A stretch of 64,000 nucleotides of DNA from Ruminococcus sp. (GTDB taxonomy: Bacteria > Bacillota > Clostridia > Oscillospirales > Ruminococcaceae), in contig JAJPYB010000004.1 of assembly GCA_021205185.1 (NCBI GenBank), positions 62,001 to 126,000 of the forward strand, in the 5' to 3' direction. Position numbers and translations under genes: made by a program. Below, in pieces: positions 1-9,908 of the stretch (positions within the stretch are counted from its first letter, which is position 1; each line of letters starts with the position of its first letter). The notes beneath the pieces are model-generated. The model did not search any database and had not been told where the DNA came from. It saw nothing but the letters and a program-made list of their open reading frames with translations.

Positions 1-74
1 TTACACGCTGGTTCACCCGTTTCTTCGCCAATTATTAAAACGATAGATAAAACCATTAGCTTCTAGTAAAAACT

Positions 75-102
75 CGTTCTGCCTGCTCTTGCAGGCAGAA
101 CG
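75..102 (+). promoter_or_regulatory. Strong intergenic hairpin before first permease gene
   Basis: A perfect 12-bp inverted repeat (75-86 and 91-102) closes on a TCTT loop. It lies 20 bases before the first FtsX-type gene and has no proper T-run after it, only TACTTTA. A similar hairpin stands at the same relative place in cassette 2 (3213-3253). I infer a processing or stability element, or a partial terminator, that separates an upstream peptide gene from the transporter genes. Confidence 0.7.
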
Positions 103-122
103 TACTTTATGGACTGAGAAAA

Positions 123-1412
123 ATGAAATACGTACTTAAAAACTTAAAGCAGTTCGCTACGAAAAACAAGCTGGTTTTCACCCTCTTTATTGTGTGCCAA
201 GTCGCTTCTATTCTAATTTTATTGCTTTCATATGGTGTATATTTGACATATAAGGAAAATTTAGATAGAGAATATATATCGACCTCGGGCTTGTATGGTG
301 ACGGCTTTTTTGGAGATAAAGACGAAAAATATAGTAAGGACGACTACAGGTATATGTTGTATACCATATATTTAGATACCGAAAACTACACGAAGACATT
401 AGGCGAGGTAAGACCAATGTTTTATGAGCTGACTGACTACTTTGACAAAAAGCTTGATTACATAGAAATGTCGTTTTTGACAGAACCAATGACACAAGAT
501 GATATAGATTATTATAACGAGCTTAACGGCTCAGGAACCTTTCCACTTTACATAATGACAATGCTTGCTAAGCACGACGGAGAATATACATTTGGAAAAA
601 CTTCACTCTTAACGCTTTACACACAACAAGAGCGTGGATATATTGGCAGATTCTTTACTGATGAAGAAGTTCAAAATGGAGATGCTGTGTGTATAGCAAA
701 TGTTGATAGAATGAAAAACCAGCAAGTAGAAACTGCAAAAGTATCTTTGAGGGAAGACGGCGAAGATGCTTATGTGACAATATGCGGCACGGAATATAAG
801 GTTATCGGTCAGGGTACAAATGGTTTGATAGGTGGTATATATATTCCCTTTGAAAACTCTCCCGATGAACTGTATGTCGACTATGCTATGTTTGTAAAAT
901 TCAACGAACCGCTCACGGTTGAAGAAAATAACAAATACGTCTCAATTATGAACAAATATCTCGGTGATATGTTGGTAAACGACTTAGACGTAGCCGTCGT
1001 AAACGTCGATAAGCAGACCTTTTACAACACGAACATCTGGCTGTCTGTAATAATTGCCTTCGCTGCAGCTATAAACCTTGCGGTTCTCTACAGATATGTC
1101 CTGACAACCCGCAGAAAAACGCTTGCAATTTTCAGACTTACAGGTGCTACAAAGAACAAAATTCGCAGAATTTATATAACAGAAACGCTGGGAATATCTG
1201 TTGTAATCTTTGCAATTTGTACAGTTATTTTCAATTTCGCCGTTCTGCCGTGGCTTACAAAATATTATCCGTACTGCGCCGAGGTGTATAATTTAAAGAT
1301 TTACGGCATTATGTTCTTAATCTATGCCGCAATCTCATATATAGTTTTAAACGCAATGATAATAGCACAAATTTCACGCTCACCAGTGGAGCTGTTGAGG
1401 GAGGGAACGTAA
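123..1412 (+). CDS. FtsX-type ABC permease, 'a' subunit of cassette 1
   Basis: 429 aa. One membrane segment at about residues 18-42, a large extracytoplasmic domain (about 45-300) rich in Tyr, Asp and Glu, then three membrane segments (about 307-325, 357-378, 393-415). This is the layout of FtsX/MacB-type permeases of ABC systems. The basic loop between segments 2 and 3 (RRKTLAIFRLTGA) is shared with the 'a' genes at 3272 and 6284 and is the usual ATPase contact region. It abuts the 'b' permease with no gap, so the pair likely works as a heterodimer energised by the ATPase at 8689. The substrate is unknown; the neighbouring secreted proteins suggest a peptide. The start has little Shine-Dalgarno (GACTGAG). 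Confidence 0.8.
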   Translation: MKYVLKNLKQFATKNKLVFTLFIVCQVASILILLLSYGVYLTYKENLDREYISTSGLYGDGFFGDKDEKYSKDDYRYMLYTIYLDTENYTKTLGEVRPMFYELTDYFDKKLDYIEMSFLTEPMTQDDIDYYNELNGSGTFPLYIMTMLAKHDGEYTFGKTSLLTLYTQQERGYIGRFFTDEEVQNGDAVCIANVDRMKNQQVETAKVSLREDGEDAYVTICGTEYKVIGQGTNGLIGGIYIPFENSPDELYVDYAMFVKFNEPLTVEENNKYVSIMNKYLGDMLVNDLDVAVVNVDKQTFYNTNIWLSVIIAFAAAINLAVLYRYVLTTRRKTLAIFRLTGATKNKIRRIYITETLGISVVIFAICTVIFNFAVLPWLTKYYPYCAEVYNLKIYGIMFLIYAAISYIVLNAMIIAQISRSPVELLREGT

Positions 1413-2633
1413 ATGTTCACATACATAAAACTGGGGTATCTGGAGTTCGTAAGAAATCTGAAAATAAACCTGCTGATAGTAATAGAGATAGCGGCGGTGC
1501 TGATAACAGCAATTTTCACCGTTTCGTCAGTCCGCTCACAGCTTCGATTTTACGAGCCTTTGTCCAATTATTTGAACTCAAATAGCCTGTATATCATACC
1601 TGAAACGCTGTCGAACAGAGTATCTTACGATAAACAGCTCACCTCATACGAAGCTATTTTTGAAAAAATTCCCGAAGCGGAAAGCGTCTGCGCGCAGACC
1701 TCCTTTAGCTTCAACTTCACAGGCGACAGTATGAACGTAAGCATTCGGGGAATGGGTTATCCGGAGGAGATAGTTGAAGGCTTCAAGCCGCTTTTGGAGG
1801 ACGGAAAATGGCTTAGCGAGGTAAGTCAGGAAGACGGGGTCGTAAATGCAGTTGTAACTGAAAATTATAGCAACTTAGAGGTAGGCAACGAGCTTACCGC
1901 CGAAACGGAATCGGGAGAACCTATAATTGTAAGAATTGTCGGCAAGATAAAAAACAGCGCCGCAATATTCAAAAAACCGAGCGGAGATATGTCTTCGTAT
2001 AAAGCGGACGATTTCTTCCCGAATTATCTTATAAATTCCGACACACAAAACGAGCCTTATATAATAGTAGCGCAGGAGGATATTGACAGGTGCGGATACT
2101 ACTATTATATTGACAAATGTGCGCTTATAAAGCTTGACGATTCGACAAGCGACGAGAGAGTTGAGGAAATACTTTCACTTGCAATGTCAGTAGGCAGCGG
2201 AATGAATGCCGAATCCATTGGCGAGAACACAATGGACGAAGTAAAAACAAACCTTATATTCCTGCTCCCGATAGTGGTAGGCGTTCTGCTCTTTACAATC
2301 GTCACAACGATTTGTATGTCCGCAATCAACGCCAAAAAGCAGCTGAGAAGCTACGGCGTATATTATATTTGCGGAAGCCGTTGGAAGCAATGCGTTTTCA
2401 TCAGCGTATTTTCGTCCATTGTAACTGCGGCAATAGCAGCAGTTTTGGCGGCCCTTGCGCTATTTATAGGAGATAAATCAGGACTGCTGAAGAACACAGT
2501 AATTGAATTTGGCTCGTGGCAGTTGCTCGCCTGCTTGGCGGTAGTGGTACTATATTTAATAACAGCAATCATAATGCCGCTTGCGATAATCGGCAGAACC
2601 AACCCGAGAGAAATATTGAAAAACAACGAGTAA
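1413..2633 (+). CDS. FtsX-type ABC permease, 'b' subunit of cassette 1
   Basis: 406 aa. N-terminal membrane segment at about 17-40, extracytoplasmic domain to about 280, then three C-terminal membrane segments. The ATG directly follows the stop of the 'a' permease, so translation is probably coupled. From base 2323 to the stop the DNA is identical to the 3' end of the 'b' gene at 4504, while the upstream two thirds have clearly diverged. This mosaic points to recent gene conversion or unequal crossing-over. Expected role: second half of a heterodimeric permease that moves or senses a peptide or lipid-linked substrate, sharing the ATPase at 8689. No database family beyond FtsX-like permease can be named. 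Confidence 0.8.
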   Translation: MFTYIKLGYLEFVRNLKINLLIVIEIAAVLITAIFTVSSVRSQLRFYEPLSNYLNSNSLYIIPETLSNRVSYDKQLTSYEAIFEKIPEAESVCAQTSFSFNFTGDSMNVSIRGMGYPEEIVEGFKPLLEDGKWLSEVSQEDGVVNAVVTENYSNLEVGNELTAETESGEPIIVRIVGKIKNSAAIFKKPSGDMSSYKADDFFPNYLINSDTQNEPYIIVAQEDIDRCGYYYYIDKCALIKLDDSTSDERVEEILSLAMSVGSGMNAESIGENTMDEVKTNLIFLLPIVVGVLLFTIVTTICMSAINAKKQLRSYGVYYICGSRWKQCVFISVFSSIVTAAIAAVLAALALFIGDKSGLLKNTVIEFGSWQLLACLAVVVLYLITAIIMPLAIIGRTNPREILKNNE

Positions 2634-2774
2634 AAAATTTCTGGCAAAATTTAATATAATTGGAAAGAGGGGGGTTCCAATGGTTTGAACAAGAGTACAT
2701 TTTATTGTACGTATAGAATGAGAAGCAAAAATATATAGTCAAAAACCCGACAGAAAGGAATTTTAAAATGAAAA
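2323..2774 (+). repeat. 452-bp direct repeat, copy 1
   Basis: This stretch matches 5414-5865 at a constant offset of 3091 bases. The coding part (2323-2633) is identical; the intergenic part differs at four bases. It covers the end of permease b, the whole spacer, the Shine-Dalgarno sequence (AGAAAGGAA) and the first seven bases of the peptide gene. Inside the spacer are small inverted repeats: ATTGGAA/TTCCAAT (2659-2665, 2675-2681) and GTACA/TGTAC. A weak promoter may be TTGAAC (2685) followed 17 bases later by TACGTA. Confidence 0.95.
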
Positions 2775-3205
2775 AATTATTTACAATCGCCGCTATGGTA
2801 GCTATCATAGCATCAATTTCGACAATGGGAGCAAGTGCAGCAGTAATTGATAACGGAGATACAGCTTCGCCAAATGCTATAACTGACTATGGACCTATGT
2901 TGGATGTTTGGTCCAGTCGTGTTTTTACAGCGACAGGTGCAAATGGACAGTCTAAAACAAATGTTACTAATCATAATTCGGCAACAACTAAAGTAGTCGT
3001 AGAAGTAAGTAGATGGAGTAAAACCTATCAAACACTATATGATGAAAAATATGAACAAGACAATGTAATCAAATCAGAATCTGTTGAAACATCATTGACA
3101 CAGAAAAGTGTGGGAGTTTATCGTTATCTTCATTCTGCTGATATCTACGGTTCGACTACAAGCAATACTGTGGTTCATACTTTTTCTTATGAAACGTTAT
3201 TTTAA
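2768..3205 (+). CDS. Small secreted protein, cassette 2
   Basis: 145 aa with a clear Sec signal peptide: basic start MKKL, a hydrophobic stretch to about residue 22 and a likely cleavage after ASA. The mature part has about 120 residues, no Cys, and is rich in Ser, Thr, Val and Tyr, so a beta-rich fold is likely. Its C-terminal half resembles the protein at 5859 (similar spacing of VEVSRWS / IDVYRYS, then YLHS / YVHTS, then SNT / SNSYT). Good Shine-Dalgarno AGAAAGGAA. Followed by a strong hairpin and then a permease pair. I do not recognise a family; the context is reminiscent of lactococcin-972-like loci, but the diagnostic motif was not seen. Confidence 0.75.
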   Translation: MKKLFTIAAMVAIIASISTMGASAAVIDNGDTASPNAITDYGPMLDVWSSRVFTATGANGQSKTNVTNHNSATTKVVVEVSRWSKTYQTLYDEKYEQDNVIKSESVETSLTQKSVGVYRYLHSADIYGSTTSNTVVHTFSYETLF

Positions 3206-3212
3206 AACTTGC

Positions 3213-3253
3213 GTGAGAGCCCTCCGACTCTTGTTGTCGGAGGGGTAACTCAC
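3213..3253 (+). promoter_or_regulatory. Intergenic hairpin between peptide gene and permease gene
   Basis: A two-part stem: outer GTGAG/CTCAC (213-217 with 249-253 of the 3000s) and inner CCCTCCGAC/GTCGGAGGG (3220-3228, 3236-3244), loop TCTTGTT. No T-run follows. It lies 8 bases after the peptide stop and 18 before the permease start. Its position and the TCTT in its loop match the hairpin at 75-102. Probable function: unequal expression of peptide and transporter from one message. Confidence 0.7.
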
Positions 3254-3271
3254 AAATAATGAGGAATAACA

Positions 3272-4507
3272 ATGAGATACACGTTAAAAAATATAAAGCA
3301 GTTTATAAAAAACAATACCTTGTATTTTTTTCTGTTTTTGCTTTCTGTGTTTATGTCGTCGCTTATTTTGCTTTCAGCATATGTAATTTATACCGAATAC
3401 CACGAAAAAACTTATAGAGAAATAAATGGTGCAGTTGGTTTGTATGATGAATCAGGAAGTGAGATGGACGAAGAGTCGCCGGAATATTTGCTTTTTCAGC
3501 AGCCGCTTGATAAATACTATGAAAATTCAATGATGCTTGGCGAATGCAGAGGATTTTTTGAAGAAGTAGGTAATGCGTTAGGAGATAAGTTAGATTATAT
3601 TTCCTTTGAATGCTATCCCAGGCTATATTCGGCGCAGGAACTTAATGATATGGAATGGAATGCCCCTTATATAACAATATATGCAACTCAAAAAAATGGA
3701 GAGGTAGTTTTTCCAAATATAAAAAATATGGTGATGACATCTGGAAGGATTCCAACGGAGTATGAAGCTTTAAACGGTGAGGCGGTTTGTCTTGCGGGTA
3801 TTGAACGTATGAGCATTTTTGATGAAAGCGATATGAAGCTGACTCAGGAGGACGGTCAGTATTATGTGACAACCTGCGGAGCTAAATATAAGGTTGTGGG
3901 TCGGTTCAATCCCCTTGCTCTGGGAATTGCAATGGCACCGCAGTCAGCTCCTGATAATTGTTATGTCGGTTCCATGTTCGAAATAAAGCTCAACGATGTG
4001 CCGACCGTAAAGGAATATGCGGCATACAAGAGCGTAGTTGATAAGTATTTCGGCGATATGATTACGCAGTCTTACGAAATCCCAACCGTTAGCGTAGAAA
4101 CAGAATATTTTTATACAACAAATGTATGGCTGTCAATTATTATTATCCTGGCGGCAGCAGTAAATCTCGCAGCACTTTATGAAAGCGTTTTAATGTCAAG
4201 AAGAAAAACATTTGCTATATTCAGACTGAATGGAGCATCAAAGCTTAAAATTTGCGAAATGTGTCTGGCAGAAACAGCGGGCATTTCAGCTATAGTATTT
4301 ATTTTAGCAGCAGTTGTATTTAAGTTTTTGGTAATGCCTGTTCTTTCAGATTATTATCCATATGCGGTATCAGTTATCAGCTTAAAAACATATATTTCAA
4401 TGTTCTTGATTTATCTTGCAGTAACAATAATAATTATCTTTGTTCTGGTTTTGAGATACTTATCCAAGACGCCTGTCACACTTTTGAAAGGCGGTGAGAG
4501 TAAGTGA
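3272..4507 (+). CDS. FtsX-type ABC permease, 'a' subunit of cassette 2
   Basis: 411 aa, paralogue of the genes at 123 and 6284. It has the same start (M-basic-YTLKNIKQF), one N-terminal membrane segment (about 17-40), an extracytoplasmic domain and three C-terminal segments separated by the basic loop SRRKTFAIFRLNGA. The extracytoplasmic domain differs most between paralogues, which fits each pair serving its own partner peptide. Shine-Dalgarno GAGGAATAACA before the ATG. The stop overlaps the start of the 'b' gene by four bases (GTGA). Confidence 0.8.
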   Translation: MRYTLKNIKQFIKNNTLYFFLFLLSVFMSSLILLSAYVIYTEYHEKTYREINGAVGLYDESGSEMDEESPEYLLFQQPLDKYYENSMMLGECRGFFEEVGNALGDKLDYISFECYPRLYSAQELNDMEWNAPYITIYATQKNGEVVFPNIKNMVMTSGRIPTEYEALNGEAVCLAGIERMSIFDESDMKLTQEDGQYYVTTCGAKYKVVGRFNPLALGIAMAPQSAPDNCYVGSMFEIKLNDVPTVKEYAAYKSVVDKYFGDMITQSYEIPTVSVETEYFYTTNVWLSIIIILAAAVNLAALYESVLMSRRKTFAIFRLNGASKLKICEMCLAETAGISAIVFILAAVVFKFLVMPVLSDYYPYAVSVISLKTYISMFLIYLAVTIIIIFVLVLRYLSKTPVTLLKGGESK

Positions 4508-5724
4508 TTACATATATAAGATTCGCACTTCTGGAATTAAAAAAGAACTCAAGATTTAATCTCATCATAGCGTTTGAAATAGCTATTTTGTTGGTTGTAG
4601 TCGTAGTTACTGTTTCTTCTGTCTTGTCACAGCTCAGGTATTATCTGCCGATGAAAGATATTTTGGATTCAAAAGGCTGCGTAGCGCAAATTGTATACAG
4701 CTCAAGCAGATATGACGAGGAAGACGCAATCTATTACGAGGAAGATATTAAAAACAAATATCCTTGCGTTGACAATATCGTTTCGATGTCACATACAACA
4801 TTATCTGTTGCAGATGCAGAAAAATATGTAAACGCTTATGTTTATGATGATATGCTTGTGGAAGGATATAAGCCGATAATGAAAAATGGTAAGTGGCTGA
4901 CTGAAGCGAAACAGGAGGACGGAGTTTTAAATGTCGTTGTTACAGAACTTAACGACTTCGGATTTAAAACAGGAGATGAGTATCAGATTCAGTCTGACGA
5001 TGGTTCGATTATAACAGCCAGAGTTGTCGGAGAAATTCTGGACGGTGCCGCTGTATTGAGCAGATATGGCAAGGATTTAGAGCTTACGGAGATAGACAGC
5101 TATTTTGCCGCTTATTATTACGACGAGGACAAAGGCGATTTGGGATTTGGAATAGTAAGCGAAAGCGAAATGGACAAATACGGATTGGATTACACGTTAT
5201 CTACTGGCGTTAGCTTTATAACTGTAAAAGATTCATCAACAGACGAAGAGCTTCAAACTCTTATGGATGGAATTAACAATTCAGGACGTTGCGTAGAAAT
5301 GTCAACAGTAAACAGCAATTCGATAAGAACTGTTAAGAAAAGCCTTTTGTTTATGGCACCTATTATGATAGGAGTTTTGCTGTTTGTAGTAATTACAAAC
5401 ATCTGCCTTTCATCAATCAACGCCAAAAAGCAGCTGAGAAGCTACGGCGTATATTATATTTGCGGAAGCCGTTGGAAGCAATGCGTTTTCATCAGCGTAT
5501 TTTCGTCCATTGTAACTGCGGCAATAGCAGCAGTTTTGGCGGCCCTTGCGCTATTTATAGGAGATAAATCAGGACTGCTGAAGAACACAGTAATTGAATT
5601 TGGCTCGTGGCAGTTGCTCGCCTGCTTGGCGGTAGTGGTACTATATTTAATAACAGCAATCATAATGCCGCTTGCGATAATCGGCAGAACCAACCCGAGA
5701 GAAATATTGAAAAACAACGAGTAA
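4504..5724 (+). CDS. FtsX-type ABC permease, 'b' subunit of cassette 2
   Basis: 406 aa, GTG start overlapping the stop of the 'a' permease; the ORF aligns with the ATG start of the 'b' gene at 1413 (ITYI / FTYI). N-terminal membrane segment at about 17-40, extracytoplasmic domain, three C-terminal segments. The last 103 codons (from 5414) are identical at DNA level to those of the gene at 1413, although the rest is only moderately similar. This is the second arm of the 452-bp repeat. Likely role as for its paralogue: half of a heterodimeric permease using the ATPase at 8689. Confidence 0.8.
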   Translation: MITYIRFALLELKKNSRFNLIIAFEIAILLVVVVVTVSSVLSQLRYYLPMKDILDSKGCVAQIVYSSSRYDEEDAIYYEEDIKNKYPCVDNIVSMSHTTLSVADAEKYVNAYVYDDMLVEGYKPIMKNGKWLTEAKQEDGVLNVVVTELNDFGFKTGDEYQIQSDDGSIITARVVGEILDGAAVLSRYGKDLELTEIDSYFAAYYYDEDKGDLGFGIVSESEMDKYGLDYTLSTGVSFITVKDSSTDEELQTLMDGINNSGRCVEMSTVNSNSIRTVKKSLLFMAPIMIGVLLFVVITNICLSSINAKKQLRSYGVYYICGSRWKQCVFISVFSSIVTAAIAAVLAALALFIGDKSGLLKNTVIEFGSWQLLACLAVVVLYLITAIIMPLAIIGRTNPREILKNNE

Positions 5725-5865
5725 AAAATTTCTGGCAAAATTTAATATAATTGGAAAGAGGGGGATTCCAATGGTTTGAACAAGAGTACATTTTATTGTA
5801 CGTTTAGAATGAGAAGCAAAAATATATAGTCGGAAACCCGACAGAAAGGAATTTTAAAATGAAAA
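5414..5865 (+). repeat. 452-bp direct repeat, copy 2
   Basis: Partner of 2323-2774. In the spacer this copy keeps a GTCGG/CCGAC inverted repeat just before the Shine-Dalgarno (about 5829-5842); in copy 1 the left arm reads GTCAA and the stem is lost. The other two differences are single bases at offsets equal to 2675 and about 2713 of copy 1. Recombination between the copies would remove exactly one peptide-a-b unit of 3091 bp and leave intact reading frames. Confidence 0.95.
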
Positions 5866-6281
5866 TCAAAAAATTAGTAACAATTTTATCAATTACAATT
5901 ATTGTGTTTGCGACGTTTACCATTGCAGCGCAAGCAACAACCGTGAACAAGTACAATAACACTTATAGTGCATCTTCCACGGTGGCAGATCTTGATTGGT
6001 CAGTTAATGGTACGTTGACTAAAGCGACCACATATAGCGAAAATGTGGTGTCATCATCAAGGTATATTGAAGCAAATATAGATGTGTATAGGTATTCAAC
6101 GGATACATATATTACTGGGAATGATAACTATGTAACCGGTGGGAACAAAGGGGTTTCTGCTTCGATTGCAAGGGATGCAACAAATAGGAACAAATATTAT
6201 GTGCATACATCTGTGATGAAACCATCTGCCTCAAATTCATACACTATAGGGGCAAATTATTATAGAGTTAATCAGAGGTAA
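5859..6281 (+). CDS. Small secreted protein, cassette 3
   Basis: 140 aa with a signal peptide (MKIKK, hydrophobic core to about residue 22, likely cleavage after AQA). Mature part of about 115 residues with no Cys and many Tyr, Ser, Thr and Asn. Distant relative of the protein at 2768, aligned best in the C-terminal half. The Shine-Dalgarno region is part of the 452-bp repeat, so both peptide genes have nearly the same upstream signals. Unlike cassette 2, no hairpin follows; only two bases separate its stop from the next permease start. Function unknown: bacteriocin-like effector, pheromone or substrate-binding partner are all possible. Confidence 0.75.
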   Translation: MKIKKLVTILSITIIVFATFTIAAQATTVNKYNNTYSASSTVADLDWSVNGTLTKATTYSENVVSSSRYIEANIDVYRYSTDTYITGNDNYVTGGNKGVSASIARDATNRNKYYVHTSVMKPSASNSYTIGANYYRVNQR

Positions 6282-6283
6282 AT

Positions 6284-7477
6284 ATGATCAGATACATTGT
6301 AAAAAACATTTCATCAACAATCAAAGAATCGTTTTTGATATCCGTATTGTACATTGTATGTTTGCTGGTATCTATTACCGTAATTTTGTTTTCGCACGGG
6401 GTTTATCAAAACTATGAAACCAAATTGCTAAGTGAGGATACGGGAGAAATTTTAAATCAGGATCTAGCGTATTTTTCAGTAGGTGAAGTTTCGGAAGTAT
6501 ATGAATACGAAGGTGTTACGGCGTATTTTTCAGATGACACCTTTCCTGTTTCTGATTTCAGAAGCTTTTTGGATATTTTAGATGATGATACCAAAGCTTC
6601 GTTCACAGGCTTTTTGATAGAATATGATTTTGAAGACACATATAATTTTGTAGACGAAGAATGGACTGCTATGGACAGCAGAATAGAATACGATGAAAAC
6701 GCTCATCAGTATGGTTTGTATTCTACATATATGAGTAATATTTCAGCATATAAAGGACGCCTGATTACACAGGAAGAAGAGCTTAATGGAGATATGGTTA
6801 TAGTGCTTCCTTACGGAAGCGATGAAGAGCTTATCGGACAAAAAGTTGAGTTTATAGGACAGGAATATGAGGTAGTGGGTATTCAAATGAGGAATCCGTA
6901 TTACACTGTACCATTTAATACGATACCTGATTCTATGCCTGTTAGTCGCTTTAGCTTTTTGGTTGATAAACCTATCTCTACAGAAACATACAAAAAAATC
7001 ACAAATGCACTTACTGAGGTTTTTGGTGATGAAATCAATTTGCCAATCTTTGAAACGGTTGATGAATCGGAACAAAGTTTTTATGTATCTGTAATGGCTA
7101 TCTCTGTAGTTTTATCTATACTCTCTGCGATAAATCTTTCGCTTCTGTTCAGGTATATTTTATCTAAAAGAAGAAAAACCTTTGCTATATATCGTGTACT
7201 TGGACTTTCTAAATTCAAGGCAAAACTAATGTGCCAAATTGAAATATTGGGAATTAACACCGTGGGATTTCTTTTGTGTGCATTGCTTTTCCACTTTGTC
7301 TTGATAGATATGATAAGCAAGGTATTTCCAAGGTTTGAAGAGGTTTATAGCATAAGCACATATTTGTATTTGTTTGCGATATTCATAGGAGTAATTTTTA
7401 TATTTACAGAGGCTGTGCTTAGAAAACAAGTAAGCAAATACCCAGTTGCTATGCTAAAAAAAGGCGGTGAATTATAA
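6284..7477 (+). CDS. FtsX-type ABC permease, 'a' subunit of cassette 3
   Basis: 397 aa. Same layout as the genes at 123 and 3272: N-terminal membrane segment (about 17-38), a shorter and more acidic extracytoplasmic domain, and three C-terminal segments with the basic loop SKRRKTFAIYRVLGLS. The start follows the peptide stop by two bases, so translation may be coupled. The stop shares one base with the ATG of the 'b' gene (TAATG). This pair is the most diverged of the three and lies next to the ATPase, so it may be the original unit. Confidence 0.8.
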   Translation: MIRYIVKNISSTIKESFLISVLYIVCLLVSITVILFSHGVYQNYETKLLSEDTGEILNQDLAYFSVGEVSEVYEYEGVTAYFSDDTFPVSDFRSFLDILDDDTKASFTGFLIEYDFEDTYNFVDEEWTAMDSRIEYDENAHQYGLYSTYMSNISAYKGRLITQEEELNGDMVIVLPYGSDEELIGQKVEFIGQEYEVVGIQMRNPYYTVPFNTIPDSMPVSRFSFLVDKPISTETYKKITNALTEVFGDEINLPIFETVDESEQSFYVSVMAISVVLSILSAINLSLLFRYILSKRRKTFAIYRVLGLSKFKAKLMCQIEILGINTVGFLLCALLFHFVLIDMISKVFPRFEEVYSISTYLYLFAIFIGVIFIFTEAVLRKQVSKYPVAMLKKGGEL

Positions 7478-8676
7478 TGCTGTCTTTAGGATTTAAGGAG
7501 TTTCAACGCCGTATTTTTACAAATTTGTTTGTAGCGCTTCAGCTTGCTGTAATTTTAGTCCTTATAATATCTGCCAGCTCGATTTTGTTTTACAGAACAT
7601 CTTTTTATTCTCCTTTGAAGGATTATATTGAAGGAAATGGTATGTACTGTCAAATTCGTACAGAAACACTAGGGGCGATGACTGAAAAAGATATAAAACA
7701 ACAGTATCCAGTTATTGAATCTATTGTAAGTGCTAATGCCGTAGATGCGACTTCAGGTTTTTCTAATATGATTGCATATACGGACGATACCATAAATATG
7801 TATGAGCCAAATATGGAATCTGGGAAATGGTTATCTGAATGCGATTTGTCGGATGATACGGTCTTTGGAGTTGTAAGTGCTAAAAGCAATCTTTCGGTTG
7901 GCGACGTTATAAAAATAACCTCTGTGCGATATGATGAGGATGATTACGAGTTTCAAAATCCGATATATGAGGATTTAGAGATACAGATAGTAGGTATCTT
8001 GAATGACAACGCAGATGTATTGTGCTTAGACGATTATTTTTCATATGACGATGATTACAGAAATATGTATGGCAATGTAGAGGATGTTGGTTCTTTGCTG
8101 ATTATGAGTCAATCTCAGCTTGACAGCAAACAAGTAGGGCATAGCCTATCGAATCGTAAGCAACTTATAAAATATAAAAGCGATGCATCGCAGCAGGAAA
8201 TTGATGAGATGAATAATCTTTTACGTGGTCTGGGACCTACTGTGGAGATGAAAGAATTTTATAACAACTCGCAAAACTATTTTTACAACCAAATGTTAAA
8301 GATAGTACCGTTGCTTATTTGTACTGTATTGCTTATAATTGTAAGTACAATTTCTATTTCGGCGTTGACTATTAAGAATAACATCAAGCTTTATTCGATT
8401 TATTATGTGTGTGGATCTGATAGAAGACAATGCTTGACTTTGTATTTCTTTAATAGTGCTTTAACCGCATTGATAGGTTTGGCGGTAACATATATTATTA
8501 TGAATATCAGTAATATTTCAGGAATTTTAGGACAAACAGTAATTCAAATTACAAACGGTGGAATCCTGATGTCTGCGGTTGCGATTTTATTACACATAGC
8601 TTGTTCTATGATAATGCCCATGGTGCTAATGAATAATAAGTCATTAAGAGAAAATATTACCGAAAACAACGAGTAA
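7477..8676 (+). CDS. FtsX-type ABC permease, 'b' subunit of cassette 3
   Basis: 399 aa. N-terminal membrane segment (about 16-38), extracytoplasmic domain, three C-terminal segments. The C-terminal region contains IKLYSIYYVCGSDRRQC, which lines up with LRSYGVYYICGSRWKQC in the two other 'b' genes, but DNA identity is much lower, so this copy did not take part in the recent conversion. Followed after 12 bases by the ATPase gene, with AAAGGAG as Shine-Dalgarno between them. Confidence 0.8.
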   Translation: MLSLGFKEFQRRIFTNLFVALQLAVILVLIISASSILFYRTSFYSPLKDYIEGNGMYCQIRTETLGAMTEKDIKQQYPVIESIVSANAVDATSGFSNMIAYTDDTINMYEPNMESGKWLSECDLSDDTVFGVVSAKSNLSVGDVIKITSVRYDEDDYEFQNPIYEDLEIQIVGILNDNADVLCLDDYFSYDDDYRNMYGNVEDVGSLLIMSQSQLDSKQVGHSLSNRKQLIKYKSDASQQEIDEMNNLLRGLGPTVEMKEFYNNSQNYFYNQMLKIVPLLICTVLLIIVSTISISALTIKNNIKLYSIYYVCGSDRRQCLTLYFFNSALTALIGLAVTYIIMNISNISGILGQTVIQITNGGILMSAVAILLHIACSMIMPMVLMNNKSLRENITENNE

Positions 8677-8688
8677 AGGAGTGCTAAT

Positions 8689-9357
8689 ATGATAAGTTTA
8701 AAGAACGTGGTTAAGGTTTACAACCCTAAAAAGGCGAACGAGTTTACAGCTTTAAAGGGTGTGGACGCACAGATTGAAGACGGAGAAATGGTAGCGATAA
8801 TTGGAAAATCAGGAGCAGGAAAGTCAACGCTTTTGCATATCCTCGCCTGCATTGACAGCTATGAGGACGGAGAGTATTACATTGACGATGAGCTTGTAAA
8901 GAAGCTAAGCGAAAAGAAATATGCAAAAATCCGAAATGAGAAAATCGGAATAGTAATGCAGGATTTTGCGCTTGTCGAGGACTTTTCAGCTATCGAGAAC
9001 GTAATGATACCGCTATCCTTTTCAAAGAAGAAAATAAGTGGAAAGAAGGATTTAGCTCTTAAAGCGCTTGATTCTGTAGGAATGAAGGAATACGCAAAGA
9101 AGTCCTGCAATAAGCTTTCAGGCGGTCAGAAGCAGAGAGTAGCGATAGCAAGGGCTATTGTAAACGATCCGACAATGATACTCGCCGACGAGCCGACAGG
9201 AGCGCTCGACACTAAAACCTCCGCTGAAATTATGGAGCTTTTCCATGAGCTTAACGAAAGAGGAAAGACGGTAATAATCGTCACACACGATCCTCTTGTC
9301 GCCGAGCAATGCGACAGAGTTATTGAAATTTCCGACGGACAAATTGTAGCCAGCTAG
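8689..9357 (+). CDS. ABC transporter ATP-binding protein (MacB/LolD/BceA type)
   Basis: 222 aa, the usual length for ATPases that serve FtsX-type permeases. Walker A GKSGAGKST (about 39-47), signature LSGGQKQR (about 141-148), Walker B MILADEPTGALD (about 160-171) and the switch His in VTHD are all present. It closes the three-cassette array and is the only ATPase in it, so it may power all three permease pairs. Such ATPases work in lipoprotein release, macrolide or peptide efflux and antimicrobial-peptide sensing; which applies here cannot be told from sequence. Confidence 0.9.
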   Translation: MISLKNVVKVYNPKKANEFTALKGVDAQIEDGEMVAIIGKSGAGKSTLLHILACIDSYEDGEYYIDDELVKKLSEKKYAKIRNEKIGIVMQDFALVEDFSAIENVMIPLSFSKKKISGKKDLALKALDSVGMKEYAKKSCNKLSGGQKQRVAIARAIVNDPTMILADEPTGALDTKTSAEIMELFHELNERGKTVIIVTHDPLVAEQCDRVIEISDGQIVAS

Positions 9358-9395
9358 AGATTCTCATAATTCCTTAACTTTTTTACACAAGAAGC

Positions 9396-9422
9396 AACCC
9401 CCTGATTTTTGTTCAGGGGGTT
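9396..9422. terminator. Terminator between convergent ATPase and rlmH genes
   Basis: Inverted repeat AACCCCCTG (9396-9404) and CAGGGGGTT (9414-9422) around a 9-base loop. It sits between two converging operons and can serve both strands, although the T-run is weak on each side. Confidence 0.75.
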
Positions 9423-9425
9423 CGC

Positions 9426-9908
9426 TTATTTATGATATTTTGAATTATTTAAAATTCCGAGCGCTCGGTAAAGCTGTTCAAGAAGCATTACCCTCGCAAG
9501 CTGATGAGGGAAGGTCATTTTCGACATTGACAGCTTAAAGTCGGAGCGGTTTTTAACCTCGTCGCAAAGTCCAAATGATGAGCCGATGATAAAGTTTACG
9601 GTTGAAATACCGCCGAGTGAAATATCGTTAAGCTTTTTGGAAAGCTCGGTCGAGGACAGCTCCTTGCCCTCAATGCACATAGAAAACGTATAGCTTCGAG
9701 GAGAGAGAAGCGATAGGATTTGCTTGCCCTCAATTCCCAGTCCGGCGGCGATTTCCTTATCGCTAGGTCTATCCGAAATTTTGTACTCGTTTACCTCGAT
9801 TATGCTTATCTTGCAAAATCCGCCAAGCCGCTTTTGATATTCGGCGCTCGCCTCACGGAGGTAATTTTCCTTTAGCTTGCCGACAGCAAAAAGGTTGATT
9901 TCAATCAT
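9426..9908 (-). CDS. rlmH: 23S rRNA (pseudouridine1915-N3)-methyltransferase
   Basis: 160 aa from the internal ATG at 9908, the normal RlmH length; an upstream in-frame start would add 24 unlike residues. It is a small SPOUT methyltransferase that methylates N3 of pseudouridine 1915 in helix 69 of 23S rRNA. Family signatures are the SAM-binding FIIGSSFGL and the C-terminal LSMSKMTFPHQLARVMLLEQLYRA. The ATG overlaps the stop of the metallo-hydrolase gene by four bases (ATGA), so the two are translationally coupled. The same neighbourhood is known in Bacillus (yycJ/walJ near rlmH). Confidence 0.95.
   Translation of the reverse strand: MIEINLFAVGKLKENYLREASAEYQKRLGGFCKISIIEVNEYKISDRPSDKEIAAGLGIEGKQILSLLSPRSYTFSMCIEGKELSSTELSKKLNDISLGGISTVNFIIGSSFGLCDEVKNRSDFKLSMSKMTFPHQLARVMLLEQLYRALGILNNSKYHK

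What the first reader, a model, noticed from the sequence alone, without database searches (positions are those of the whole stretch)
1..9357. Three tandem FtsX permease-pair cassettes with interspersed secreted proteins and one shared ATPase
Seen: six FtsX-type permease genes in three a/b pairs, two small signal-peptide proteins preceding pairs 2 and 3, and a single ABC ATPase at the end. Known: FtsX-type permeases need an ATPase dimer and often act on peptides (bacteriocin, BceAB-like and lactococcin-972-like loci). Inferred: each peptide pairs with its adjacent permease, the outer domains having diverged for specificity, and all share the ATPase. A modular toxin/immunity or peptide-signalling array would be new.
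Basis: partly seen in the sequence, partly recalled or inferred. Interest (0 to 1): 0.8.

Follow-up and report, generated by a model that had tools for sequence, protein, structure and literature searches.

The report
Secreted-protein and transporter cassettes sharing one ATPase
A gut Ruminococcus carries three side-by-side gene cassettes, each pairing a small secreted protein with its own two-part membrane transporter, with one ATPase gene apparently serving all; it looks like a stack of bacteriocin-and-immunity units, but no activity has been tested.

Summary
The array is real and larger than reported: a third secreted-protein gene (SP1) starts 375 bases before the window, giving three full cassettes, SP-A-B x3, then one ATPase. 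A is a 4-TM MacB/FtsX-type (type VII ABC) permease, B a divergent partner. The SPs are Sec-type proteins without a family in Pfam, NCBIfam or the PDB. In the genus, 13 of 13 strong SP matches sit directly before an A permease. In sister genome G567, SP and the A outer domain are replaced together, while the A C-terminal membrane part, B and ATPase stay 98-100% identical. The ATPase clade occurs once in each of 10 of 10 genus genomes with these permeases (38 B rows, 47 A rows, some partial) and in 0 of 5 without; in G063 and single-contig G117 it stands apart from every permease found. SP is lost repeatedly (frameshifted in one relative) while SP-less A genes stay under purifying selection. Best reading: Sec-secreted bacteriocin-like proteins with dedicated permease immunity energised by one shared ATPase, arrays keeping orphan immunity. 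It works like lactococcin-972 loci but fails that family's sequence tests. Toxicity, immunity and physical ATPase sharing are inferred, not shown.

The parts
1..66 (+). SP1, last 22 codons with the stop (the gene starts 375 bases upstream of the window, C4:61626-62066; 146 aa with Sec-type signal)
75..102 (+). 12-bp perfect hairpin between SP1 and A1; a hairpin with paired base changes stands at the same place in sister genome G567
123..1412 (+). A1 permease, 429 aa, FtsX C-terminal domain, 4 TM
1413..2633 (+). B1 permease, 406 aa, 4 TM
2321..2767 (+). 447-bp direct repeat, copy 1 (end of B1 plus intergenic, stops at the SP2 start codon)
   Evidence: 98.7% identical to copy 2
2768..3205 (+). 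SP2, 145-aa Sec-type secreted protein
3213..3253 (+). hairpin between SP2 and A2 (9-bp GC-rich inner stem)
3272..4507 (+). A2 permease, 411 aa
4504..5724 (+). B2 permease, 406 aa (last 102 residues identical to B1)
5412..5858 (+). 447-bp direct repeat, copy 2 (end of B2 plus intergenic, stops at the SP3 start codon)
5859..6281 (+). SP3, 140-aa Sec-type secreted protein
6284..7477 (+). A3 permease, 397 aa
7477..8676 (+). B3 permease, 399 aa
8689..9357 (+). ABC ATPase, 222 aa, thought to be shared; best NCBIfam model TIGR03608 at 231.5 bits (cut-off 254.85)
9396..9422 (.). hairpin after the ATPase, terminator-like on both strands by a consensus scan

Best explanation
Each cassette encodes a small Sec-exported bacteriocin-like protein (SP) and a two-subunit MacB/YknZ-like permease (A with B) that protects the producer from it. 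The outer domain of A recognises the matching SP; B completes the permease; one ATPase gene at the end of the array supplies ATPase subunits to every A/B pair, here and elsewhere in the genome. ATP-driven movement of the outer domains removes or keeps the SP from its target at the cell surface. Arrays grow and shrink by recombination between repeated permease ends. Permeases that have lost their SP are kept as orphan immunity, which would explain why permeases outnumber SPs and the single ATPase. Shown: gene order, SP-A linkage and joint divergence, one clade ATPase per genus genome with strict co-occurrence there, repeated SP loss or gain on the A tree, purifying selection on SP-less A. Inferred: SP toxicity, immunity, direct SP-A contact, physical ATPase sharing.
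For: SP tied to A: 13 of 13 genus SP matches of at least 40 bits lie directly before an A gene; 18 of 62 A genes against 12 of 528 other genes and 0 of 55 B. SP and A distances correlate, Mantel r 0.83 on 12 representative cassettes; a same-genus and an other-genus cassette share SP 50% and A 60% identical (L109_13, L131_7). In G567 the SP mature part (55% aa, dS saturated) and A outer domain (70% aa, dS 1.8) differ, while A residues 304-429 (98.4%), B (98-100%) and ATPase (99.1%) have dS at most 0.24; two flank genes 0.23 and 0.36. One ATPase of at least 80% identity in 10 of 10 genus genomes with A, none in 5 of 5 without; family sample 17 of 21 with A, 0 of 20 without (the 293-bit line was drawn after seeing the scores). 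G063: nine A matches, one clade ATPase with no permease beside it. G117, one contig: the clade ATPase has no A or B match within 18 kb and lies about 0.67 Mb from the A-A-B locus. SP label needs 13 changes on the A tree, at least 10 forced by strong branches; G568 has a frameshifted SP beside intact A/B while the nearest A relatives in G164 and G574 lack SP; 10 of 10 SP-less A pairs compared have dN/dS 0.03-0.17. Precedents read in passages: YknWXYZ protects against SDP toxin (PMC4887032); scbBC without scbA in 157 of 571 pneumococci (PMC11796350).
Against: No SP has known toxicity, and none matches a bacteriocin family: PF09683 not met, profile comparison with two Lcn972 proteins gives probability 1.4%. 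Adjacent genes are replaced together by recombination whether or not they interact, so the G567 block and the Mantel test do not prove contact; A also correlates with B (r 0.92). No SP was found for 44 of 62 A genes, so A/B may have a main function unrelated to SP. Four of 21 family genomes with A lack the clade ATPase (G056, G083, G094, G106); in G083 and G094 a 55-58% identical ATPase lies near the A match instead. The G108 clade ATPase has a stop codon inside. G116-type outliers aside, G117 also has a second A-B pair with its own 55% identical ATPase. SP-bearing A pairs have dN/dS 0.11-0.27 (3 pairs), not clearly different from SP-less ones. In the best-sampled clade the SP mature part (71% mean identity) is no faster than the A outer domain (70%) or its own signal peptide (72%). 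Other ATPases of the genome could serve some pairs.
Confidence: 0.5

Rival explanations
1. Secretion or release system: SP leaves through Sec and the adjacent A/B/ATPase machine pulls it off the membrane or releases it (as LolCDE does for lipoproteins); SP is cargo, not a toxin.
For: SP is tied to A; the A model matches LolCDE and MacB chains.
Against: SP has a Sec-type signal and, read by eye, no consistent lipobox, so it should need no dedicated exporter. No SP was found for 44 of 62 A genes, the 10 SP-less A pairs compared are under purifying selection, and in G568 the SP is broken beside intact A/B.
Confidence: 0.15
2. Extracellular peptide sensing or signalling: SP is a pheromone read by the permease.
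For: Type VII permeases can act as sensors or signal relays (BceAB, FtsEX; established knowledge); the A model shares that fold. A Ser/Thr protein kinase and a PP2C-like phosphatase (recognised by eye) lie about 7-10 kb upstream of SP1.
Against: No histidine kinase or response regulator was recognised among the ORFs of the array and its flanks; SPs of about 115 mature residues are larger than usual pheromones; SP-less permeases are common.
Confidence: 0.1
3. SP is a structural partner or adaptor of the permease, like the FtsEX cofactors or MacA, and the transporters have an unrelated job such as envelope maintenance or drug efflux.
For: SP lies in the permease operon and diverges with the A outer domain.
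Against: An obligatory partner should not be missing from 44 of 62 A genes nor be broken while A stays intact. SP matches no adaptor family by sequence.
Confidence: 0.15
4. Each A/B pair uses any of several ABC ATPases; the single ATPase at the array end serves only pair 3.
For: A second ATPase, 41% identical, exists in the genome, and others fall below the threshold of that search. Subunit sharing was not tested biochemically. G083, G094 and one G117 pair have a different ATPase nearby.
Against: Sister genome G567 has the same ATPase (99%) directly after B1, without cassettes 2 and 3. One clade ATPase per genus genome against 1-7 B rows, and co-occurrence 10 of 10 versus 0 of 5. In G063 and G117 the clade ATPase stands alone.
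Confidence: 0.15

Closest known systems
Lactococcin 972-type loci (lcn972-orf2-orf3, scbABC, mediterrocin mdc)
   Same: Sec-exported small protein in one locus with a membrane permease and an ATPase thought to give immunity (PMC4055356 and PMC11796350: passages; PMC12345188: abstract and passages); nearest NCBIfam ATPase model is TIGR03608.
   Different: SP not PF09683; permeases are separate 4-TM A and B proteins, not the DUF1430/TIGR01654 protein; several cassettes per ATPase; permeases outnumber SPs.
YknWXYZ of Bacillus (SDP toxin protection)
   Different: YknWXYZ has a YknX adaptor and its own ATPase; here no adaptor, two permease subunits, arrays, SP inside the operon.
MsmX multitask ATPase of sugar importers
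   Same: One ATPase powers several permease pairs (PMC11466899, passages).
   Different: MsmX serves type I importers; here type VII permeases, and sharing is inferred from gene counts and co-occurrence only.
ADOP orphan FtsX-type permeases (TIGR03434; definition recalled)
   Same: Many permeases without a neighbouring ATPase.
   Different: 20.5 bits at best against a cut-off of 622.3; here linked to SP and to one clade ATPase.
BceAB-type peptide resistance
   Same: Type VII fold; about 170 residues of the A model align with BceB at 2.8 A.
   Different: BceB is a single longer permease with a two-component system (recalled); neither was seen here.

Membership tests
Lactococcin 972 bacteriocin locus | Bacteriocin matches PF09683 | tested here: not met
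   No match for SP1-SP3 or 6 relatives; none in own genome; hhalign probability 1.4% against two Lcn972 proteins (a weak test)
Lactococcin 972 bacteriocin locus | Sec-type signal peptide on the small protein | tested here: met
   Positive then hydrophobic N-terminus by own script and by reading; SignalP not available
Lactococcin 972 bacteriocin locus | DUF1430/TIGR01654 permease | tested here: not met
   At most 20 bits, cut-off 189.35
Lactococcin 972 bacteriocin locus | TIGR03608 ATPase | tested here: inconclusive
   Best model, 231.5 bits, but under the cut-off 254.85
Lactococcin 972 bacteriocin locus | Antibacterial activity and immunity | not testable with these tools
   Needs experiments
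Type VII ABC (MacB/FtsX/LolC) transporter | FtsX domain, 4 TM with large outer domain after TM1 | tested here: met
   A1-A3 pass PF02687 (B1-B3 do not); 4-5 hydrophobic segments; AlphaFold model of A1, pLDDT 67, matches MacB, LolCDE, YtrF, HrtB, BceB and FtsX chains at Foldseek E 1e-8 to 1e-2 with TM-scores of about 0.3
Type VII ABC (MacB/FtsX/LolC) transporter | MacB-type outer domain | tested here: inconclusive
BceAB-type module | Adjacent two-component system | tested here: not met
   None recognised: nine array proteins and six upstream proteins scanned, other flank ORFs read by eye
FtsEX with peptidoglycan hydrolase | Secreted partner with a hydrolase domain | tested here: not met
   SPs have no Pfam domain above cut-off
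Multitask ATPase (MsmX-like sharing) | One ATPase gene, many permease pairs in the genome | tested here: met
   One clade ATPase in each of 10 genus genomes, 38 B rows in all, 1-7 per genome
Multitask ATPase (MsmX-like sharing) | ATPase physically energises several permeases | not testable with these tools
   Needs deletion or complex purification
ADOP orphan permeases | TIGR03434 above cut-off | tested here: not met
   20.5 bits at best, cut-off 622.3

The most novel reading that the evidence does not exclude
A modular immunity repertoire: a single hub ATPase powers an expandable set of A/B permeases, each A outer domain matched to one variant of a polymorphic family of Sec-secreted bacteriocins. 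Cassettes are gained, lost and re-paired by recombination that swaps SP and A outer domain as one unit, while A cassettes stripped of their toxin accumulate as a record of toxins met in the gut.
Probability: 0.35. Interest if true: 0.8.

Novelty: new variant of a known kind. Interest (0 to 1): 0.6.

Why it matters
If right, it describes a bacteriocin-like family without a model in Pfam or NCBIfam in gut Ruminococcaceae-like bacteria, and an immunity system built like a rack: interchangeable recognition permeases on one shared engine. It would give natural toxin/receptor pairs for studying how MacB-type transporters recognise proteins, and a test case of ATPase sharing in type VII ABC systems, known for sugar importers (MsmX). 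No such array appeared in the listings of four searches of the held library (none found; 12 of 21 listed; 1 of 1; 10 of 680 listed); apart from passages of one paper only titles and abstract beginnings were seen there, so this does not show that it is unpublished.

Tried and rejected
Lcn972 membership: a likeness seen by eye between SP C-termini and one Lcn972 protein (L117) was not borne out by profile comparison (two template sequences only). AlphaFold of SP3 with SP2 gave pLDDT 39, pTM 0.29: no fold search was run on it, so the SP fold is unknown. PDB sequence searches with SP gave nothing below E 0.07. Relatives elsewhere: viral contigs for SP, A and ATPase none; plasmids and phages for A none; plasmids for the ATPase, three records at most 51% identical. 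SP was not searched in plasmids or phages. The order-wide SP search gave 34 of 394 genomes, but outside the own genome no match exceeds 31 bits and none covers the whole profile; not used as evidence. Class-wide, A relatives at 1e-25 occur in 3 of 391 genomes, the three listed being of the own family (at most four candidates per genome were scored there, so a lower bound). The ATPase co-occurrence test examined 20 of the 176 family genomes without an A match. The SP-A hairpin is not general: clear in 4 of the 17 cassettes with gaps under 200 bases (SP1, SP2, G567, L107). PADLOC: no match for SPs or permeases; for the ATPase 31 families, the strongest mad3 at 124.9 bits, taken as general ATPase similarity. 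The SP label is only weakly clustered on the A tree (13 changes, shuffled mean 16.2, 20-23 of 500 shuffles as low; quick tree with long branches). Rows dropped before counts: L052_6 and L130_6 (permease N-terminal fragments) and L113_15 (a 191-aa protein of another kind) from the 21 raw A-with-SP rows; L040_7 was kept, its SP one gene further upstream; the tree left out A rows under 330 aa (59 of 62 kept). The 47 A rows include partial rows of one gene split by contig ends or frames (G164 and G574 at least). My gene caller missed the ATPase genes of L135 and L128, found by tblastn, so the 22 ATPase genes are a lower bound.
Full report
What is there. The window is C4:62001-126000 of a 1.75-Mb genome. 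The array reads SP1-A1-B1-SP2-A2-B2-SP3-A3-B3-ATPase on one strand. Upstream lie a GH26 gene and zinc-ribbon-like and SPFH-like genes (the last two kinds below Pfam's cut-offs); downstream, on the other strand, a gene that reads as rlmH (recognised by eye).

Secreted proteins. SP1-SP3 are 19-28% identical to one another, have a Sec-type start, and match nothing above cut-off in Pfam or NCBIfam. Over 12 relatives the only invariant residue besides Met1 is a His, mostly within Y/W-H or Y-x-H, near the C-terminus.

SP goes with A. In 15 genus genomes, 13 SP matches of at least 40 bits occur in 9 genomes; all 13 lie directly 5' of an A permease, one of them frameshifted. The weaker rows of that search (under 28 bits) mostly cover the N-terminal part only; one nearly full-length 20.5-bit row in G574 is not beside a permease (L114). 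The SP of G578 (L123) was found by position, not by that search. Across the 44 loci mapped, a small Sec-type ORF precedes 21 of 62 A genes (18 after curation), 0 of 55 B, 0 of 22 ATPase genes, 12 of 528 others (p about 7e-12). These loci were chosen because they hold A permeases. SP and A distances correlate (Mantel r 0.97 on 18 cassettes, 0.83 on 12 representatives; SP-B 0.76; A-B 0.92), so A and B cannot be told apart by this test alone.

The sister genome. Against flanks of 92-93% DNA identity, G567 shows no cassettes 2 and 3, its B1 being followed straight by the ATPase with the junction at the ends of B1 and B3 (only two A rows and one B row in the genome; contigs end inside the array, so sequence in the gap cannot be excluded). 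On another contig it has an A1-like gene, cut by the contig end (outer domain 95% aa), with SP1 missing between the upstream gene and A. Its SP-bearing cassette is a mosaic: SP mature part 55% aa with saturated dS, A outer domain 70% aa with dS 1.8 and dN/dS 0.1; SP signal 93% aa (dS 0.9) and A residues 1-45 98% aa (dS 0.68) are also old; A residues 304-429 98.4% (dS 0.2), B 98-100% (dS at most 0.12), ATPase 99.1% (dS 0.24); two flank genes dS 0.23 and 0.36. A block carrying SP plus the A outer domain was exchanged, the rest kept. Adjacent genes can move together without interacting, so this supports but does not prove matching. In the own genome a 447-bp repeat, 98.7% identical (end of B plus intergenic, ending at the SP start codon), flanks cassette SP2-A2-B2, a possible means of such exchange.

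One ATPase, many permeases. A permeases occur in 10 of 15 genus genomes (47 rows, some partial), B in the same 10 (38 rows). Each of these 10 has exactly one ATPase at 80-100% identity to the window's, the next best being at most 54%; the 5 without A have none (best 55%). In the family, 17 of 21 genomes with A have an ATPase of 293 bits or more, against 0 of 20 sampled without A (p 5e-8; the line was drawn after seeing the scores); some have more than one (G113 three; G010 and G193 two), and the one of G108 has a stop codon inside. The 4 exceptions are G056 (85% complete, 510 contigs) and G083, G094 and G106 (A matches of 1e-21 to 1e-17); G083 and G094 have a 55-58% identical ATPase near the A match. 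In G063, nine A matches lie at seven places, five of the mapped loci holding fused 816-883-aa A-B proteins, and the ATPase has no permease gene next to it (its contig begins 0.6 kb beyond). In G117, a single contig, the clade ATPase (75%) has no A or B match within the 18 kb fetched and lies about 0.67 Mb from the A-A-B locus, which has no ATPase beside it; a second G117 pair has its own, 55% identical ATPase. Arrays in relatives mix orders such as A-B-A-B-A-A-S-A-B-A-B-T in G574, so A without its own B also occurs. Within one clade of six cassettes mean identity is 97% for the ATPase, 89% for A and B C-terminal membrane parts, 70% and 74% for A and B outer domains, 71% for the mature SP and 72% for its signal.

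SP loss, permease kept. On a 59-row A tree the SP label needs 13 changes, at least 10 forced by strong branches (quick method, several long branches). L110 (G568) has signal and mature SP in different frames beside intact A and B; its closest A relatives in G164 and G574 have no SP in the 119- and 108-base gaps. Ten SP-less A pairs compared have dN/dS 0.03-0.17, so these permeases stay useful without an SP beside them. That is expected of immunity genes, and matches scbBC without scbA (157 of 571 pneumococcal genomes, PMC11796350, passages); it is less expected of a cargo exporter or an obligate partner. It is also expected if A/B has a job unrelated to SP, and three SP-bearing pairs have similar values (0.11-0.27).

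Mechanism. Best reading, 0.5: SP is a Sec-secreted bacteriocin-like protein, A/B plus ATPase its immunity, in the manner of YknWXYZ against SDP (PMC4887032, passages) and of the lcn972 cluster, whose carriers had MICs of 800-1600 against 12.5 AU/ml in the rows seen (PMC4055356, passages). Sub-claims: shared ATPase 0.8, SP-A pairing 0.75, SP toxicity about 0.5 (my estimates). It is not filed as a lactococcin 972 locus, since PF09683 and TIGR01654 were tested and not met.

Noticed in passing
L132 (G063:C11:600-1271) and L135:8776-9441 (G117:C1): Genes for the clade ATPase with no A or B permease beside them, in genomes whose A-type permeases lie elsewhere (in G063 partly as fused 816-883-aa A-B proteins).
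   Followed up: partly
L109 (G568:C9), 7415-7846 and 9359-9790: Two SP copies with identical protein sequence in tandem cassettes whose A permeases are 91% identical, the first A without a B.
   Followed up: no
L114:9101-9523 (G574:C9) and L049:11497-11898 (G071): Another small secreted protein type, alike by eye in two genera; not beside a permease in L114, one gene away from a fused permease in L049.
   Followed up: no
L113:2388-5267 (G571:C2): Next to the array, a second set of an ABC ATPase, two membrane proteins and a 145-aa secreted protein.
   Followed up: no
L033, L110, L124 (G164, G568, G574): Conserved neighbourhood: A-B pair beside a peptidyl-prolyl-isomerase-like lipoprotein gene (recognised by eye) and another ABC ATPase with a membrane protein.
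   Followed up: no
L118 (G308:C13): A true Lcn972-family gene (PF09683, 31.5 bits) with a 683-aa membrane protein and an ATPase, the only one in 197 genomes of the order searched.
   Followed up: partly
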